This document shows positions 32,152 to 38,237 of a stretch of DNA of 64,000 nt, piece by piece. The notes below the pieces were generated by a model. That model was not told the DNA's origin. It saw only the letters and a list, made by a program, of their open reading frames with translations, and ran no database searches. Every line of letters starts with the position of its first letter. Position 1 is the first letter of the stretch. The translations under genes and the position numbers were made by a program. The stretch lies in contig JAQWNG010000025.1 in assembly GCA_029246385.1 (NCBI GenBank), positions 248,001 to 312,000 on the forward strand. Direction: 5' to 3'. Origin of the DNA: Halioglobus sp. (lineage in GTDB: Bacteria > Pseudomonadota > Gammaproteobacteria > Pseudomonadales > Halieaceae).

Positions 32152-33417
32152 TTATTCAGAGGCGCTCTGATCGGGCAACACAGTCTCGCCACGGATAAGA
32201 TCAGCCAGCGTTTCGCGCGGTCGCACCAGATGTGCATGATCAGCGTCCACCATGATTTCTGGGGCGCGGCCACGGCTGTTATAATTAGAGCTCATAGTAA
32301 ACCCATAGGCACCGGCGCCAAACATCGCTAGCAAATCACCTTGAGCAAGTGTCAGCTCTCGTCCCTTTCCAAGGAAATCACCGGTTTCACACACGGGGCC
32401 CACTACATCCCACTCCGCGCATTGTCCCTCTGCAGTTTTCTCTACGCACTGGATGTCCATCCAAGCTTCATAAAGTGCCGGGCGCAGCATATCGTTCATC
32501 GCGGTATCTACCAGTGCAAAGTGATGATCAGGCGTAGGTTTAAGATACTCCACCTGCATGACGAGCACGCCTGCGTTGGCAGCAATGGAACGGCCAGGTT
32601 CAAACATTAGCTGTACACTGCGATCACCTAGTACCTCCCTAATCGCAGTGATGTACTCGCCGATGGAGGGCGGCTCTTCATCGCGGTAATGTACACCGAG
32701 TCCGCCGCCCAGATCCAGATGGCGAATGACGATGCCCAGCCCCGCTAGCGTGTCGACGAGTTCCAGTAGTCGGTGCAGAGCGTCAATAAACGGACTGATT
32801 TCCGTCAGCTGTGAACCTATGTGGCAGTCGAGGCCGACGATCTGCACGTTATCTAATTTTGCGGCGTGCTGGTATACCCGCAGTGCTTCATCGATCGTTA
32901 GCCCAAACTTGTTTTCACGCAGGCCGGTGGAGATATAGGGATGCGTTTTTGCATCCACATCAGGGTTCACCCTGATGGATACCGGTGCAATTTGACTGAG
33001 CTGCCCCGCGACCGTGTTCAGTACTTCTAGCTCTGCTGCAGATTCAAGGTTGAAGCAGTGAATGCCCAGTTCCAGCGCCCTCGCCATTTCTTCAGATTTT
33101 TTACTGACGCCAGAAAATACGACATTGGCTGGATCGCCGCCAGCGGCGATTACGCGTTCCAACTCTCCGCCTGATACGATATCAAAGCCTGCACCTAGTT
33201 TTGCCAGGACATTGAGTACGGCTAGATTGGAATTGGCCTTTACTGCGTAGCAAATCAGGTGATCGACACCTTCAAGTGCTCGTCGGTATTCCATGAAGGC
33301 ATGTTCCAGCGCTGATCGGGAATAGATATAGCAGGGCGTTCCGTGGGTGGCCGCGATTTCGCTGACAGCTACGTTTTCTGCGTACAGGCTACCCTCACGA
33401 TAAGTAAAATAGCTCAT
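32152..33417 (-). CDS. lysA: Diaminopimelate decarboxylase LysA
   Basis: A 421-residue PLP enzyme that makes lysine from meso-diaminopimelate. The PLP lysine is in CYAVKANSN, and HIGSQL, LDLGGGLGV and the C-terminal GPVCETGDFLGKGREL are family hallmarks. It is intact. The first codons are duplicated as a stub in the right repeat around 37570-37643, where they read MNYFIYREGSLYA compared with MSYFTYREGSLYA here. Preceded by lptM 14 nt upstream. Confidence 0.96.
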   Translation of the reverse strand: MSYFTYREGSLYAENVAVSEIAATHGTPCYIYSRSALEHAFMEYRRALEGVDHLICYAVKANSNLAVLNVLAKLGAGFDIVSGGELERVIAAGGDPANVVFSGVSKKSEEMARALELGIHCFNLESAAELEVLNTVAGQLSQIAPVSIRVNPDVDAKTHPYISTGLRENKFGLTIDEALRVYQHAAKLDNVQIVGLDCHIGSQLTEISPFIDALHRLLELVDTLAGLGIVIRHLDLGGGLGVHYRDEEPPSIGEYITAIREVLGDRSVQLMFEPGRSIAANAGVLVMQVEYLKPTPDHHFALVDTAMNDMLRPALYEAWMDIQCVEKTAEGQCAEWDVVGPVCETGDFLGKGRELTLAQGDLLAMFGAGAYGFTMSSNYNSRGRAPEIMVDADHAHLVRPRETLADLIRGETVLPDQSASE

Positions 33418-33431
33418 TAGTTTGCTTCGCC

Positions 33432-33587
33432 TCAGGATGCTTTGCTGTTTTGCTCGGCGCCGCCTGCGGGTGCGGCTGGTGGCGCTGGGGCGTTTTCAGG
33501 GGGCATATACAGCGCCCCTGTTTGCCCACACCCGCTGAGGATGCTAACGGTGAGTGCAATTAGCATGAAAATACGGGGATAAGACAT
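33432..33587 (-). CDS. lptM: LptM-type small lipoprotein, copy A
   Basis: A 51-residue lipoprotein. From the ATG at 33587 the signal peptide (MSYPRIFMLIALTVSIL) ends at lipobox LSGC (C20), followed by GQTGALYMPPE, the LptM (YifL) signature close to GQKGPLYLP. The tail is Pro/Ala-rich. LptM assists disulfide maturation of the LptD-LptE LPS translocon. It sits 14 nt before lysA as usual. It is part of the left copy of the direct repeat. A diverged second copy lies at 37656-37811. Confidence 0.88.
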   Translation of the reverse strand: MSYPRIFMLIALTVSILSGCGQTGALYMPPENAPAPPAAPAGGAEQNSKAS

Positions 33588-33688
33588 ACGCTACTCCGGT
33601 TGGTAATGTGCCAAAGTATACCGCCTGCTAGTAAACGGCGCGAACAGCCCTACTATTGAATTATGCACACTTTAGCTAAACAAGTACT

Positions 33689-33784
33689 GTGATACCTAAA
33701 TTAGCATGCGACTCTTCCATAGCATGCATTTTCGAGGCGCTGTAAAAGACTCCGCACTAGATTGCTGCCGATATTGACTATCAG
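33689..33784 (+). pseudogene. cyaY: Remnant of cyaY 5' end (truncated, with stops)
   Basis: Starting at GTG 33689, the frame aligns codon for codon with the intact cyaY at 37914: GTG-ATA, then TTT/TTC-GAG-GCx-(T/C)TG, then an exact 15-nt match GATATTGACTATCAG (33770-33784 against 37995-38009). In-frame TAA and TAG codons interrupt it, and similarity stops after about 32 codons. It is the dead cyaY fragment of the left repeat. Confidence 0.85.
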
Positions 33785-33986
33785 CAAATATATAAACTCG
33801 GAGCGGAGGGCCTGCTAGATCGTCTGGTCGCACTGCGCGGCGACTTCTAAAACTACGCGATACCGTTCCAGCTGTCGCGACGCTACAGTCGTGTTGCTTA
33901 GGAGGCAGTCAAGATAAACGCATGGTTACCTGGTTGAGTGCAGCGATGCAGGGCATGATTTTTTTAACGGTGCAAGCTTTTGCTGA
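33785..33986. other. Degenerate sequence inside the island
   Basis: No intact gene was found. A plus-strand frame from about 33802 reads as a protein-like string (LGAEGLLDRLVALRGDF, stop, NYAIPFQLSRRYSRVA, stop), which could be a second gene remnant, but no family was recognised. Confidence 0.35.
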
Positions 33987-35151
33987 CTATGAAAATGATG
34001 CTGGCTCTTTCCGCACCCAATCCTCACCCTTTTTGACAAGTGTTAATCCTCGATTCAGAAGCCTTTTGACCGGCATTCCCTTTTCATACCACCACCGGTT
34101 ATGCAAGGTCCGCTTGCGATTTTTATAATGCCAGAGCCTTGGTTTTGTATTTTCCTCGAGTGAGCCCTATGAAGCTTGTCTGTGCTTTGCTTTTGTAGCC
34201 GATGACCTCGCGGCGGTAGGTGATGTCGCCGGAGTTTGGAAAACTCTTAGTAGACCTTTCTTCAAACTTGCCAGTTTCTGTTCTTGAGGCTTTTACTGTC
34301 ATGTGAGCGACAAGGCCCTTTTCGATATTGTAGTTGCTAGCAAAATAAACTTGAGTTCCGTCAGGGTTGCCTTGTGGTCTGGATCATAAGCTTCCTAGGC
34401 ATCGCCAACTTCTTCTGGAAAGCAGATTTGCGACCTAGCATCACTGAAACTCCAACGGCTACCTGCTGGTTACCCACAAGGTCATACTCGCCGTTGCCAA
34501 GCCAACGTTGGTGAGGGGGCTGAGCTAGAGCGGTGGCAGTACATATTCTGCCCATCAAGATCCGACCACGTGCGACTGGGACTGAAAGGCGGCCCCTGTT
34601 TAGCCAATTTATTTCGCATCATGAGGACAGGATGATTGCGGTTGGGAAGGGCGCGTTAACCAGTGCCGTCACCTAAGGTTTCTGGTCTTGAGTTTTCTTT
34701 AATCGCCATTCGGACGGCGAGAAGTTCGGGACCTTTGCCCCGAAAACGTTGGTTACCATACAACCAGTGATCTTCAGATTCGGTTTCGCCAAGAAACTCA
34801 ATGCCGTGTCCTATTGTGACTGTCTTTCCCGTATCCACGTCCAGCCACTGATTCGCAATACCGTCCTTATAACATTATCCTTTGCCATTATATTGGAAAT
34901 AGAAAAGCCAGTTATGACTGGTTAGCCCAGAGCGGATAAAGGCCTAATCCGATTAGCGCGTCTTCGTTTTTGTGGAGATCATACAGATGTATTTCGGCCT
35001 TCTTTTTCGCCGTGCCGCCGGCCCAACGATTGAGACTGATGTACCGTCCGCCTGGACCCCAGCACTGAGTATTGTGATAATTTGCGTAATCGCGTTTAGC
35101 AGGATCGTGAGTCAATCGCCACAGGGTGGTATAAGGCCTGCTTGGATCAGG
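33987..35151 (-). pseudogene. Frameshifted beta-propeller-like protein remnant
   Basis: Minus-strand fragments in different frames read as one broken gene. They are 35151-34912 (DPAKRDYANYHNTQCWGPGG then RYISLNRW), 34916-34656 (HNWLFYFQYNGKG, stop, then GIANQWLDVDTGKTVTIGHG), about 34384-34123 (NPDGTQVYFASNYNIEKG) and about 34165-33987 (HYKNRKRTLHNRWWYEKG). The PGGRYISL and PDGTQVYFAS units resemble TolB/oligogalacturonide-lyase-type propeller repeats. At least two frameshifts and several stops make it non-functional. Family assignment is tentative. Confidence 0.6.
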
Positions 35152-35327
35152 CTATTTAAACACCGTCTTTTCCGCTTCTAGCCCTATCCTCTCCTGGCTA
35201 CGTTGCTTTTCAATGGTTTTTTCGCGGCGACGTGTTTTGCCTTTTTCTTTGAGCTGAAGAGATGGTCATCGAGAGAGTATCTAGACTTCATTACGCACTG
35301 TACAGCGAGTATCTGATGTTGGTGCAG
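35152..35327. other. Region between propeller remnant and sulfotransferase
   Basis: No intact gene. A short minus-strand open stretch (about 35265-35152) encodes a charged peptide (LKEKGKTRRREKTIEKQRSQ) and ends in a TAG just before the first propeller fragment. It may be the tail of another lost gene. Confidence 0.3.
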
Positions 35328-36302
35328 TTACTTTGCTTGCCCCTTAAATGCGCCCTCCCGATGAAGCTTAAAGAAATACCGTGAGCCTTTAACTAAGCCT
35401 TTTTCATTGCAATGAAACCTTAATGCGTTAACGCCATCATACATCTTGAGAAGGGCTAGTCTGCCTGAACTTAATTTTAGCGCTCTAAGTGTCGGTTCAT
35501 TGAAGTAGCCCATAGAGTGACCTGTTGTACAGCAAATGCGCTCTATGGTCCGTATTTCTTTTTGCGTTAAATTTTCTTTATATCTATTCCTGTTGGTTGT
35601 GATTAATCCAATATGCCCTTTCGCAGCACCAAGATTTTCAGTGGCGTGCTCCAGAATGGACAGACCTTTTTCGAAGTCACAATCAACAAATAAACAAATT
35701 TTTGCTATGACATTATCAGGGTTTTTCAATAAGTCTTCATAATGGATTTCTAAATAATTATCCGGATATTGTTGGCGATACTTTATCGCAGCGTCCATGG
35801 TGACAGACCACCTATGGGCCGCTCGTTTGAGGCTCATTCCCCATGCTTGGCGCACAGAAGCACTATAGTCACGCGGGTCTCTAATGATATGGACCATTCT
35901 TATGTCTGGCCATATTTTTATCAGCATGTCTAAATGTAAAATATAGCCTGGTGTTTTATCACCGAACCGGGCGTTCGCCTCGCCTTTCACTCCATAATAG
36001 CGAAGAATGTTCTCAAGGAATGCCGCCCAGTTAAGCTCGGAACCCATGTCTTTAAAATTAATTTCTTCAATCCGCGGTTTTTCCTGCACTAAAAAAAATT
36101 TTGTTGAATAAAACCTGTTAAGCGCCGCCCGTAAATTGTTTACGTCATTGAGATTATATTCCATGCCAAACGCCCGAATGAATTCCGGAATAAAATGTGT
36201 TTCTGAGTCCGGTATAGAAATTTTCGAGTGATTGTTAAGTATATCCCTAAGTAACTTAGTGCCGCTGCGCGGCATTCCGCTAATAAAGATCGGTTTCGTC
36301 AT
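35328..36302 (-). CDS. Sulfotransferase family protein
   Basis: A 324-residue PAPS-dependent sulfotransferase fold protein. The 5'-phosphosulfate-binding loop is FISGMPRSGTKLLRDIL at the N-terminus, and the 3'-phosphate-binding segment is MVHIIRDPRDYSASVRQAWG (RDPRD with Ser). It should transfer sulfate to an acceptor such as a surface glycan or lipid. There is no signal peptide. It lies 33 nt after a GT4 glycosyltransferase on the same strand and is more AT-rich than the neighbouring housekeeping genes, suggesting acquired DNA. The acceptor is unknown. Confidence 0.87.
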   Translation of the reverse strand: MTKPIFISGMPRSGTKLLRDILNNHSKISIPDSETHFIPEFIRAFGMEYNLNDVNNLRAALNRFYSTKFFLVQEKPRIEEINFKDMGSELNWAAFLENILRYYGVKGEANARFGDKTPGYILHLDMLIKIWPDIRMVHIIRDPRDYSASVRQAWGMSLKRAAHRWSVTMDAAIKYRQQYPDNYLEIHYEDLLKNPDNVIAKICLFVDCDFEKGLSILEHATENLGAAKGHIGLITTNRNRYKENLTQKEIRTIERICCTTGHSMGYFNEPTLRALKLSSGRLALLKMYDGVNALRFHCNEKGLVKGSRYFFKLHREGAFKGQAK

Positions 36303-36335
36303 AGTTGTTGGCCAGCTAACATAAAGTTGATGAGA

Positions 36336-37463
36336 TTATAAAAAGTGACTGATTACAGTTTTAGCCCTTATCGACCAGCTATATTTTGTCGCTATATCTT
36401 GGTGGGCGTTGCTGGATATTGACAGGCGCAAGTCTTGGTCGTTAATCAGTCGTTTTATTGATGAGACCCAAGCCCCGTAGTCAGCAGGCTCGCATAATAA
36501 GGCGTTTCTTTCGTCCTCAAGGACTTCGCGCAAAACGGGGATATCGGAGCAAATTATTGCTTTACCTGCGGCCATGTATTCAAAAATTTTAAGAGGTGAC
36601 ATCCATTTGCTGGTATCAAGTCCGCTGGTAACCATTACTGTTTCCTGATATGGGGCTAAAAGAATATCCATTTTTAGGCTGATCTCTGCCGCTTTTTGCG
36701 GGGAAACAAAGCCATAAAAGCTGAGATTTTTAGTGGCGGTGGATTGCTTTTTCCAATACGTTACGTCATCTGGATTCCCGCCGACGACGTGAAAGTTTGC
36801 CGCAGGAATAGCCCGCGCAGCTTCTATGATGACTTCGATACCTCTTCCCTTGTAAAGGTGCCCAACATAGCCGATTGATACATTGTTTTTATCGAAGCTA
36901 TGGGTAATATTCTTTGCTATGTCAGATCCATCATGGGCTACCAGAACCCGAGCTGGGTCTATCGGATGTGCTTCTATCAACAGTTCTTTTAATGCCTTTG
37001 AAATGACAACAAGCATCTTCACTCTGTCTGAGCGTAAAACGAAATTTAACAATAATCGATCTAGATACTTGAATTCCGTTAGTGGCGTGTGAGTTTCAAA
37101 AATAGTATTATTGCGAAGCAGGCAAGCGAAAAATGCGATTTCCATAGAACGCGTATAGAAAATATCGGTGCCGTTGAACTTCGCCTTGATCGCAGAAATA
37201 AAACCATGGATGTAGACCCCCACTTTGGGCAGCCACAACGTTTTTTCTATTTGGAAGTTACGGGTTACTCCGTAGAACGCATAGACATCATCAACTCCCT
37301 TCAGACGACCCTTCCTGCGCGGAGGGACAACTAATGTGGTTTGATGGCCGTCGGCAGCCAATGCCTGGCACATTTTCATGACATGCACACTATTGGCAAA
37401 TCGTGAGGGTATTATCGATCTGGCCGAATACATAATTTTGAGCGGACTGCCATTCTTTTTCAT
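36336..37463 (-). CDS. GT4-family glycosyltransferase
   Basis: A 375-residue GT-B fold glycosyltransferase. The N-terminal acceptor domain begins KIMYSARSIIPSRFANSVHVMKMCQAL. The C-terminal nucleotide-sugar domain has IGYVGHLYKGRGIEVIIEAA, followed by SPLKIFEYMAAGKAIICSDIPVLREVL with the E-x7-E type motif of GT4 enzymes. It probably extends a surface polysaccharide or glycolipid. Paired with the sulfotransferase 33 nt downstream, the two may make a sulfated glycan. AT-rich like its partner. Confidence 0.88.
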   Translation of the reverse strand: MKKNGSPLKIMYSARSIIPSRFANSVHVMKMCQALAADGHQTTLVVPPRRKGRLKGVDDVYAFYGVTRNFQIEKTLWLPKVGVYIHGFISAIKAKFNGTDIFYTRSMEIAFFACLLRNNTIFETHTPLTEFKYLDRLLLNFVLRSDRVKMLVVISKALKELLIEAHPIDPARVLVAHDGSDIAKNITHSFDKNNVSIGYVGHLYKGRGIEVIIEAARAIPAANFHVVGGNPDDVTYWKKQSTATKNLSFYGFVSPQKAAEISLKMDILLAPYQETVMVTSGLDTSKWMSPLKIFEYMAAGKAIICSDIPVLREVLEDERNALLCEPADYGAWVSSIKRLINDQDLRLSISSNAHQDIATKYSWSIRAKTVISHFL

Positions 37464-37564
37464 AGTTAAAGCTTGTCTATTGTGACGCCAGTGAGCAACA
37501 GATTAAGCGGGGAATTTTATTGGCATTTCCTCGCGCCGATCGGAAAAATATACAGCGACCCGCA

Positions 37565-37643
37565 ATGCGAGTGTCAGTAACCATACTCATGGCAACGTTT
37601 GCCGCATACAGGCTGCCCTCACGATAAATAAAGTAGTTCATTA
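37565..37643 (-). pseudogene. lysA: lysA 5' stub
   Basis: The minus-strand frame from ATG 37643 reads MNYFIYREGSLYAANVAMS, matching the start of intact LysA (MSYFTYREGSLYAENVAVS). Similarity fades after about 20 codons and the PLP-binding region is absent. It is the truncated lysA of the right repeat. Confidence 0.82.
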
Positions 37644-38009
37644 CTTCCTCTCGCCTCAGCGCACCCTCTTCTTATGCACAGCGTCCTCTGCGGATGCGAC
37701 CGGTGGTCGCGGGGCCTCCTCGGACGGCGTGTATAGCGCACGTGTTTGCGAGCACCCACTGGAAACGCCAATGATGAATGCAGTTAACACGAAAGTATGG
37801 AAATAAGGCATAGGTTGCTCAAGGCAATAGTGAGGCAAAGTATACCGTTCGCTGGTAAGCGGCGCTAACAGCCCTTATTATTGAATTGTGCACATTTTGG
37901 TGGGACAAGTCCTGTGATAACTGAATTAGAATTCAATAAATTGATAGAACTCACCTTTGAGGCTTTGGAGGAGGCCTTGGATCAGATCGATGCGGATATT
38001 GACTATCAG
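37595..38009. repeat. Right direct repeat (lysA 5' stub - lptM - cyaY 5' end)
   Basis: A 415-bp counterpart of 33371-33784. It begins inside a lysA remnant (first codons MNYFIYREGSLYAANVA on the minus strand, possibly extending to about 37570), contains the second lptM, and ends within codon 32 of intact cyaY. The last 15 nt are identical between copies. Confidence 0.88.
37656..37811 (-). CDS. lptM: LptM-type small lipoprotein, copy B (diverged)
   Basis: A 51-residue open frame with exactly the length of copy A. From the ATG at 37811 the signal peptide ends at SSGC, a weak lipobox with Ser instead of a hydrophobic residue at -3. The mature part starts SQTRALYTPSE, where copy A has GQTGALYMPPE and the family consensus is near GQKGPLYLP. 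The tail is charged (HKKRVR). It may still be expressed, but loss of conserved positions suggests relaxed selection. In place of lysA it is followed by a lysA stub. Confidence 0.65.
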   Translation of the reverse strand: MPYFHTFVLTAFIIGVSSGCSQTRALYTPSEEAPRPPVASAEDAVHKKRVR

Positions 38010-38237
38010 ACGGTTGGCAGTGTGCTAACCGTCGAATTCGACAACGAAACAAAACTGGTGTTCAGTTGTCAGCCACCAACACGGCAGCTATGGCTAGCAG
38101 CGCGCTCTGGCGGATTTCACTTTGCTTACGATGAAGCAGTAGGCGATTGGCGGGGAACTCGAGATGGCCAGTTGTTTCAACCTTTTGTTGTTGAGCAGAT
38201 GCGGGCTCAGGGAGGCGTGACCTTTGAATGGCGTTAA
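37914..38237 (+). CDS. cyaY: Iron donor / frataxin homologue CyaY
   Basis: A 107-residue bacterial frataxin that binds iron and regulates Fe-S cluster assembly on IscS/IscU. The acidic first helix (ITELEFNKLIELTFEALEEA then DQIDADID) and the strands SVLTVEFDNETKLVFSCQPP, RQLWLAARSGGFHF and W-containing ending are typical. The GTG at 37914 starts the family-matching sequence. Its 5' end belongs to the right repeat, and a dead copy lies at 33689-33784. The DUF3187 frame begins within its last codons. Confidence 0.92.
   Translation: MITELEFNKLIELTFEALEEALDQIDADIDYQTVGSVLTVEFDNETKLVFSCQPPTRQLWLAARSGGFHFAYDEAVGDWRGTRDGQLFQPFVVEQMRAQGGVTFEWR

What the first reader, a model, noticed from the sequence alone, without database searches (positions are those of the whole stretch)
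33371..38009. Island bracketed by 415-bp direct repeats of the lysA-lptM-cyaY locus, as left by single-crossover integration
Segments 33371-33784 and 37595-38009 are collinear: both carry lysA 5' codons, a 51-codon lptM and about 32 codons of cyaY, offset by 4224-4225 bp. On the left, lysA is whole and cyaY is a dead stub. On the right, lysA is a stub and cyaY is whole. That mirror arrangement is what Campbell insertion of a circle carrying a fragment of this locus produces. The copies have diverged, so the event is old or the donor was a different species. No integrase, transposase or att site is seen, so homology rather than site-specific recombination is implied.
Basis: partly seen in the sequence, partly recalled or inferred. 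Interest (0 to 1): 0.78.

Follow-up and report, generated by a model that had tools for sequence, protein, structure and literature searches.

The report
Gene island between duplicated promoters
In a marine bacterium, a stretch holding a promoter region shared by two core genes exists twice with foreign-looking sugar-modifying genes in between, so that each core gene apparently kept a promoter; some sister species hold other genes at the same spot.

Summary
The repeat is real and slightly longer than reported: 33298-33784 and 37522-38009, 68% identical over 489 columns. In 12 of 17 other same-genus genomes lysA and cyaY lie uninterrupted (starts 271-315 bp apart). In three they are 5.6, 1.6 and 16.8 kb apart; one is unresolved and one lacks the locus. 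The insert holds a GT4-type glycosyltransferase and a sulfotransferase, both GC-poor (44%, 41%), and a decayed gene.

Against a different-species donor: six copies from four carriers form one clade (100/100; AU p at most 3e-5 for placing right copies with other genus members). This lineage's own DNA was duplicated before these species split.

The copies then divided the work. Left keeps lysA-lptM; its cyaY stub is dead. Right keeps cyaY; its lysA stub is dead. The right lptM is still an open 51-codon frame in two species; constraint on it is visible in G005's lineage, not in the window's own. The divergent promoter core survives in both copies and may drive the cargo operon (inferred). Cargo differs in G007 and G011, so this is a flexible-island hotspot. 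Campbell integration of same-lineage DNA fits; tandem duplication followed by insertion fits nearly as well.

The parts
32152..33417 (-). lysA, whole
   Evidence: 421-aa ORF; orthologues beside cyaY in 12 same-genus genomes
33298..33785 (.). Left copy of the repeat (lysA 5' part, lptM, divergent promoter region, cyaY stub)
   Evidence: 68.3% over 489 columns to 37522-38009, E 2e-69
33432..33587 (-). lptM, left copy, native lipoprotein gene
   Evidence: LptM_cons PF13627 E 7e-8
33612..33665 (.). Core of the divergent promoter region, left copy; keeps TATACT on the lptM strand, has a 1-nt deletion on the cyaY side
   Evidence: 85% to the right copy, while the genic parts of the repeat are 65-68%; sequences; promoter role inferred
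33689..33785 (+). cyaY stub, dead
   Evidence: stops; no codon-position bias between G000 and G005 left copies, 15/12/12 differences
34008..35175 (-). Decayed remains of a gene intact in G011 (709 aa) and in G005
   Evidence: five tblastn pieces, 62-76% identity, four of them with stops inside
35328..36302 (-). Sulfotransferase, 324 aa
   Evidence: Sulfotransfer_3 E 5e-34; dN/dS 0.13 against G005
36336..37463 (-). GT4-type glycosyltransferase, 375 aa
   Evidence: PF13692, PF00534, PF13439; dN/dS 0.12 against G005
37522..38009 (.). Right copy of the repeat
   Evidence: homology to lysA starts at 37521-37522 also against four loci of relatives and G002
37522..37641 (-). lysA stub, dead
   Evidence: no third-position bias between G000 and G005 right copies, 17/17/10 differences
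37656..37811 (-). lptM2: right lptM copy, 51 codons, open in G000 and G005
   Evidence: G000 against G005: dN/dS 0.21, third positions 27/50 vs 24/100, p 3e-4; but by branch the bias is in G005 (4/4/15, p 7e-4), not in the window's copy (5/6/7, p 0.39); no Pfam match even at E 1
37836..37890 (.). Core of the divergent promoter region, right copy; serves cyaY and possibly lptM2-GT-sulfotransferase
   Evidence: 93% between G000 and G005 right copies; TATACT kept on the lptM strand; role inferred
37914..38237 (+). cyaY, whole
   Evidence: Frataxin_Cyay; 84-88% aa to the four clade members

Best explanation
This is an old flexible genomic island at the junction of lptM-lysA and cyaY, two divergently transcribed core units. 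In an ancestor of a small group of Halieaceae species, a segment of about 490 bp (lysA start, lptM, shared divergent promoter region, cyaY start) ended up in direct duplicate with foreign-looking genes between the copies. I favour one event, a single-crossover (Campbell-like) integration of DNA that already carried this lineage's own segment; that step is inferred. Because the segment contains the whole divergent promoter region, the insertion cost neither flank its promoter. The left copy kept serving lptM-lysA and the right copy cyaY, and the useless halves (left cyaY stub, right lysA stub) decayed. The right promoter's other face and the right lptM frame remain at the head of a leftward row lptM2-glycosyltransferase-sulfotransferase, which gives the cargo a ready promoter (inferred from order, strand and a retained -10-like box). 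The space between the copies has since been re-used: G011 holds another surface-polysaccharide-type cluster there and G007 an oxidoreductase gene that its relatives carry elsewhere.
For: Repeat statistics. Uninterrupted locus in 12 of 17 same-genus genomes and 5 further same-family genomes, lysA-cyaY starts 252-433 bp apart. Left and right copies one clade: 100/100 for six copies against eight genus members, 1.000 in a 27-row FastTree with ten copies; right copies with other genus members rejected. Orthologous left and right copies in G005, left cyaY stub in G011. Stubs dead, glycosyltransferase and sulfotransferase under selection. Promoter core better kept than the genic parts of the repeat in G000 (85% against 65-68%) and G005 (83% against 55-65%). 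Synonymous divergence of cargo (0.78, 0.98) close to that of cyaY, argH and DUF3187 (0.46, 0.65, 0.87), so inherited vertically since the G000-G005 ancestor. Cargo differs in G011 and G007. At E 1e-40 the sulfotransferase is found in 1 and the glycosyltransferase in 3 of 390 genomes sampled from the order, the window's own included; at most 5 candidates a genome were scored. The leftward -10-like box is kept in the right copies of G000 and G005, which have the leftward genes, and is altered in G007 and absent in G011, which lack them.
Against: Campbell and tandem-duplication-first leave the same final layout. No circle, plasmid or donor was found. Promoter activity is untested, and the sigma-70 scan found no site in the core and no excess over shuffles. 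G006 also keeps the box in its right copy, with its insert unknown. In G007 the core is only 71% alike between copies. G007, probably the basal species (81/80), shows only about 100 bp of repeat and neither stub, so its insertion could be independent. On the 92 intergenic columns alone the clade of all copies is unsupported (46/4), and left and right copies are not separated. The left part of the insert is hardly GC-shifted. Constraint on lptM2 is not visible on the window's own branch, though the native left lptM shows little either (6/2/6 and 3/5/7). Most relatives are metagenome assemblies.
Confidence: 0.5

Rival explanations
1. Tandem duplication first: slippage or recombination doubled the 490-bp segment; the redundant junction between the cyaY stub and the lysA stub was then a harmless landing site into which foreign DNA was inserted, more than once.
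For: Both copies are own-lineage DNA; cargo at the same site differs among G000/G005, G011 and G007; G007 received a gene that G000, G005 and G006 carry elsewhere.
Against: No genome with a cargo-free tandem repeat was seen among the 18 of the genus, of which G006 is unresolved and G003 lacks the locus; needs two steps.
Confidence: 0.33
2. Campbell insertion of a circle carrying a fragment of this locus from a different species.
For: Mirror layout and 32% divergence between copies; GC-poor glycosyltransferase and sulfotransferase.
Against: Six copies form one clade, 100/100; grouping the right copies with G010 or with G001/G002/G009/G016 is rejected at p 5e-6 and 3e-5 for the full repeat and at 4e-4 and 1e-4 for the lysA-lptM part. 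Divergence is explained by age and by decay of the stubs.
Confidence: 0.05
3. Site-specific or transposon-borne island with the repeat as an unusually long target duplication.
For: A stretch of about 93 bp of the G011 island matches sequence repeated in G001, in one copy beside a transposase gene.
Against: No integrase or transposase domain in the window's insert proteins scanned, no tRNA, the transposase-linked stretch not found in the window, G005 or G007 inserts, and 490 bp is far longer than known target duplications (recalled).
Confidence: 0.04
4. Assembly artefact: a false duplication in the window's contig.
For: Most relatives are metagenome assemblies; G006 contigs end in adapter-like sequence at this very place.
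Against: The copies differ at 32% of positions and recur in the same arrangement in the separate assembly G005, with partial forms in G011 and G007.
Confidence: 0.01

Closest known systems
Replacement flexible genomic islands of aquatic bacteria (PMC4033161; abstract and outline seen)
   Same: Variable surface-type genes at one core-gene junction, different content in relatives; exchange by homologous recombination proposed there
   Different: Here the island is bracketed by a direct duplication of the host's own divergent promoter region, and the compared genomes are different species
Campbell-type insertion-duplication (single crossover of a circle; recalled)
   Same: Direct repeat of a host segment around the insert, one truncated gene on each inner side
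   Different: No vector, integrase or replicon genes seen; old and decayed
Merodiploids formed during natural transformation (PMC3784515; abstract and outline seen)
   Same: Taken-up DNA that shares a segment with the host leads to direct duplication
   Different: Those tandem duplications are about 100-900 kb; this one is about 490 bp around a few kb
LptM (YifL), PF13627 (PMC10567701; passages seen)
   Same: Left copy matches the conserved LptM region; small lipoprotein; right copies keep 51 codons and the lipobox cysteine
   Different: Both right copies lack the Pfam match, change the residue after the cysteine and share a G-to-R change

Membership tests
Flexible genomic island at a core-gene hotspot | Empty site in relatives | tested here: met
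   12 of 17 other same-genus genomes uninterrupted
Flexible genomic island at a core-gene hotspot | Different cargo at the same site in related genomes | tested here: met
   G000/G005, G011 and G007 differ
Flexible genomic island at a core-gene hotspot | Composition unlike flanks | tested here: met
   Glycosyltransferase 44% and sulfotransferase 41% GC against 53-56% in lysA, dapF, argH, DUF3187 (cyaY 49%); the left part of the insert is only slightly low
Flexible genomic island at a core-gene hotspot | Recombination peaks in flanks between close strains | not tested
   No two strains of one species were at hand
Campbell-type integration | Direct repeat with mirror-image truncations | tested here: met
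Campbell-type integration | Circular donor carrying the segment | tested here: inconclusive
   No plasmid or phage match to the insert; collections are partial
Campbell-type integration from another species | Inner stub parts derive from a donor distinct from the host lineage | tested here: not met
   One clade with host copies, 100/100; a same-lineage donor cannot be told apart from the host
Integrative element (ICE/IME/prophage) | Integrase, tRNA att site, mobility genes | tested here: not met
   No such domains in the insert proteins scanned, no tRNA in the window
LptM family (right copy) | Match to LptM_cons PF13627 | tested here: not met
   No family at E 1 for the window copy or the G005 copy
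LptM family (right copy) | Association with LptDE | not testable with these tools
   needs a pull-down

The most novel reading that the evidence does not exclude
lptM2 is a re-purposed copy of the LPS-translocon lipoprotein that was kept because it works with the glycosyltransferase and sulfotransferase behind it, for example by helping the translocon handle a sulfated or otherwise altered LPS. The duplication would thus have given the cargo both a promoter and its own export cofactor.
Probability: 0.06. Interest if true: 0.65.

Novelty: new member of a known kind. Interest (0 to 1): 0.38.

Why it matters
It suggests how foreign genes can be lodged between two divergent core genes without breaking either: duplicating the shared promoter region makes the spot safe and may hand the cargo a promoter. 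The case is dated (before the split of these species), has sister species with other cargo, and separates dead stubs from kept genes by codon-position tests. It also offers a second lptM-like gene that could be tested.

Tried and rejected
Foreign-species donor: rejected by trees. Integrase, tRNA site, RNA element, plasmid or phage origin: nothing found. Identifying the 709-aa protein whose gene is decayed in the window: no Pfam or NCBIfam family at the limits used, only chance-level PDB hits and weak PHROGs matches. Sigma-70 scan: no site in the promoter core, 6 found in the region against 7.8 expected. Resolving G006: its contigs C76 and C96 both end inside lptM in adapter-like sequence, so it is left unresolved. 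The 92 intergenic columns alone neither support the clade of all copies nor separate left from right.

lptM2: in a neutral simulation both frames stayed open in 21-31% of runs, and start, cysteine and frame together in 2-6%, so an open frame alone is weak evidence. The codon-position bias between the two right copies turned out on a later check by branch to lie in G005 (4/4/15) and not in the window's own copy (5/6/7); comparisons of the window's right copy with left copies show none either (16/17/20 and 12/14/15). I therefore withdrew 'under selection' for the window's copy and lowered the probability of the novel reading from 0.08 to 0.06.

My first species tree used two out-of-frame protein queries; it was repeated in frame with the same pairs. 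The monooxygenase gene in the G007 insert is the only match at E 1e-60 in G007, while G000, G005 and G006 have it near another oxidoreductase-like gene; whether it moved or a second copy lies in an assembly gap is open.

The clades tested by AU were named after seeing the first tree. Rows left out: outgroups were 8 of the 17 uninterrupted loci; G006_L in all four trees; G011_R, G007_R and G006_R in the full and lysA-lptM trees; G007_L in the last tree.
Full report
WHAT IS THERE. The window lies in G000:C7:248001-312000. The 14 named relatives found with its CyaY are Halioglobus, Haliea, Halieaceae or unclassified gammaproteobacterial records, nearly all labelled as metagenome assemblies (titles). 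The two segments align over 33298-33784 and 37522-38009, 68.3% in 489 columns, E 2e-69; 54 random window segments reach a raw score of at most 13 against 171. Left: whole lysA, lptM, then a cyaY stub with stops. Right: a lysA stub, a 51-codon lptM, then whole cyaY. Between them lie, all on the minus strand, a GT4-type glycosyltransferase (36336-37463), a Sulfotransfer_3 sulfotransferase (35328-36302) and decayed pieces of a gene intact in G011 and G005. GC is 44% and 41% in the two intact genes, 53-56% in lysA, dapF, argH and DUF3187, and 49% in cyaY. The decayed left part of the insert is 47-51%, hardly below the flanks.

ANCESTRAL STATE. Of 17 other same-genus genomes, 12 have lysA and cyaY starts 271-315 bp apart; so have 5 further same-family genomes, at 252-433 bp. 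An lptM match lies between in 10 of those 12 by tblastn; in the other two (G002, G009) it is seen only in the DNA alignment. G005, G007 and G011 have the starts 5.6, 1.6 and 16.8 kb apart; the window has 4.5 kb. G006 is unresolved because both contigs end inside lptM in adapter-like sequence (adapter identity recalled). G003 (74% complete) has no close lysA (best 31% identity) and no cyaY match.

SAME LINEAGE, OLD. In a 14-row tree of the repeat, six left and right copies form one clade against eight other genus members with support 100/100; the right copies of G000 and G005 group at 100/99 and their left copies at 95/95. Forcing right copies to G010 or to G001/G002/G009/G016 is rejected (p 5e-6 and 3e-5); the lysA-lptM part alone gives 4e-4 and 1e-4; the interg+cyaY part 0.03 and 0.04. 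In the interg+cyaY tree the clade of copies has 95/94 and the left copies of G000, G005 and G011 group at 86/86, not starred. The 92 intergenic columns alone give no support for the clade, 46/4 (all). A 27-row FastTree with ten copies also gives one clade, 1.000. So the duplicated DNA is this lineage's own, and the duplication predates the G000-G005 split and, by the shared left stub, probably the G011 split. G007 is probably basal (81/80); it has only about 100 bp of repeat, 76% identical, and neither stub, so I cannot say whether it shares the event.

DIVISION OF LABOUR. Differences by codon position (first/second/third) between G000 and G005 show which parts live. Left lysA: 1, 2, 11. Right lysA stub: 17, 17, 10. 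Left cyaY stub: 15, 12, 12. Right lptM: 11, 13, 27 of 50 each, p 3e-4. NG86 dN/dS is 0.21 for right and 0.29 for left lptM, with dS 1.33 near saturation for the right; it is 0.12 for the glycosyltransferase and 0.13 for the sulfotransferase. Split by branch with G011's left copy as yardstick, the right-lptM bias lies in G005 (4, 4, 15; p 7e-4, or 0.017 with two yardsticks); the window's own copy shows 5, 6, 7 (p 0.39). The native left copies show little bias by the same method (6, 2, 6 and 3, 5, 7), so the test is weak for so short a gene. Right lptM copies share a G-to-R change and have S or A after the cysteine; neither matches a Pfam family even at E 1, whereas the left copies of G000 and G011 match LptM_cons. 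The 54-bp promoter core is 85% identical between the window's copies, while the lptM part is 65%, the lysA part 67% and the cyaY part 68%; in G005 the core is 83%, in G007 71%. The TATAAT-like box on the lptM strand is present in both copies in G000 and G005, altered in the right copy of G007 and absent from that of G011, which have no leftward operon there; G006 keeps it, with unknown insert. Promoter function is inferred; a consensus scan found no site in that core.

CARGO HISTORY. Cargo synonymous divergence between G000 and G005 is 0.78 (glycosyltransferase) and 0.98 (sulfotransferase), against 0.46, 0.65 and 0.87 for cyaY, argH and DUF3187, as expected if the cargo was inherited vertically since their ancestor. 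In G011 the 709-aa gene and 42 aligned residues of the sulfotransferase C-terminus remain, with methyltransferases, a GT2 glycosyltransferase, an acyltransferase and a radical SAM protein, and a stretch of about 93 bp that recurs seven times in G001, in one copy beside a transposase gene. In G007 the insert is a luciferase-like monooxygenase gene that G000, G005 and G006 carry elsewhere. At E 1e-40 the glycosyltransferase was found in 3 and the sulfotransferase in 1 of 390 genomes sampled from the order, the window's own included, with at most 5 candidates a genome scored.

MECHANISM. Shown: duplication of own-lineage DNA, cargo between the copies, decay of the redundant halves, different cargo in relatives. 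Inferred: that cargo and duplication arrived together by a single crossover (favoured), and that the right promoter copy drives lptM2-glycosyltransferase-sulfotransferase. Tandem duplication first is a close rival.

COMPARISON. The behaviour is that of flexible genomic islands, for which homologous recombination has been proposed (PMC4033161, abstract and outline). Transformation can generate duplications (PMC3784515, abstract and outline), and one-sided homology can anchor foreign DNA (PMC3240628, start of abstract in the listing). LptM assists LPS-translocon assembly in E. coli (PMC10567701, passages). A search for Halioglobus with 'genomic island' listed two papers, neither opened; I make no wider claim about what is in print.

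Noticed in passing
L041 start and L044 end (G006 contigs C76, C96): Both contigs end inside lptM in sequence that looks like a Nextera adapter (adapter recalled), so this public assembly appears broken artificially at the locus studied.
   Followed up: partly
L040:2054-3070: In G007 a luciferase-like monooxygenase gene sits in the lysA-cyaY junction and is the only match at E 1e-60 there, while G000, G005 and G006 have it elsewhere near another oxidoreductase-like gene.
   Followed up: partly
L039:3239-3344: A stretch of about 93-106 bp of the G011 island is 74-76% identical to sequence found seven times in G001, in one copy just upstream of a HTH_Tnp_1 transposase gene: a possible insertion-sequence remnant.
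   Followed up: partly
L042 and L043 (G005 contigs C46, C19): lysA of G005 is split over two contig ends with overlapping parts, so this assembly is broken inside lysA.
   Followed up: no
L039:1700-2123: Next to the left cyaY stub in G011 a broken frame reads like the start of an acyltransferase (by eye); Pfam gave no match to the fragment tried.
   Followed up: partly
57 genomes searched: The window's CyaY gave no match at E 0.001 in 29 of 57 genomes of the order, including several near-complete same-family ones, so this gene may often be lost or too diverged.
   Followed up: no
window 33786-34000: About 200 bp between the cyaY stub and the decayed gene has no recognisable gene but aligns loosely with G005.
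   Followed up: partly
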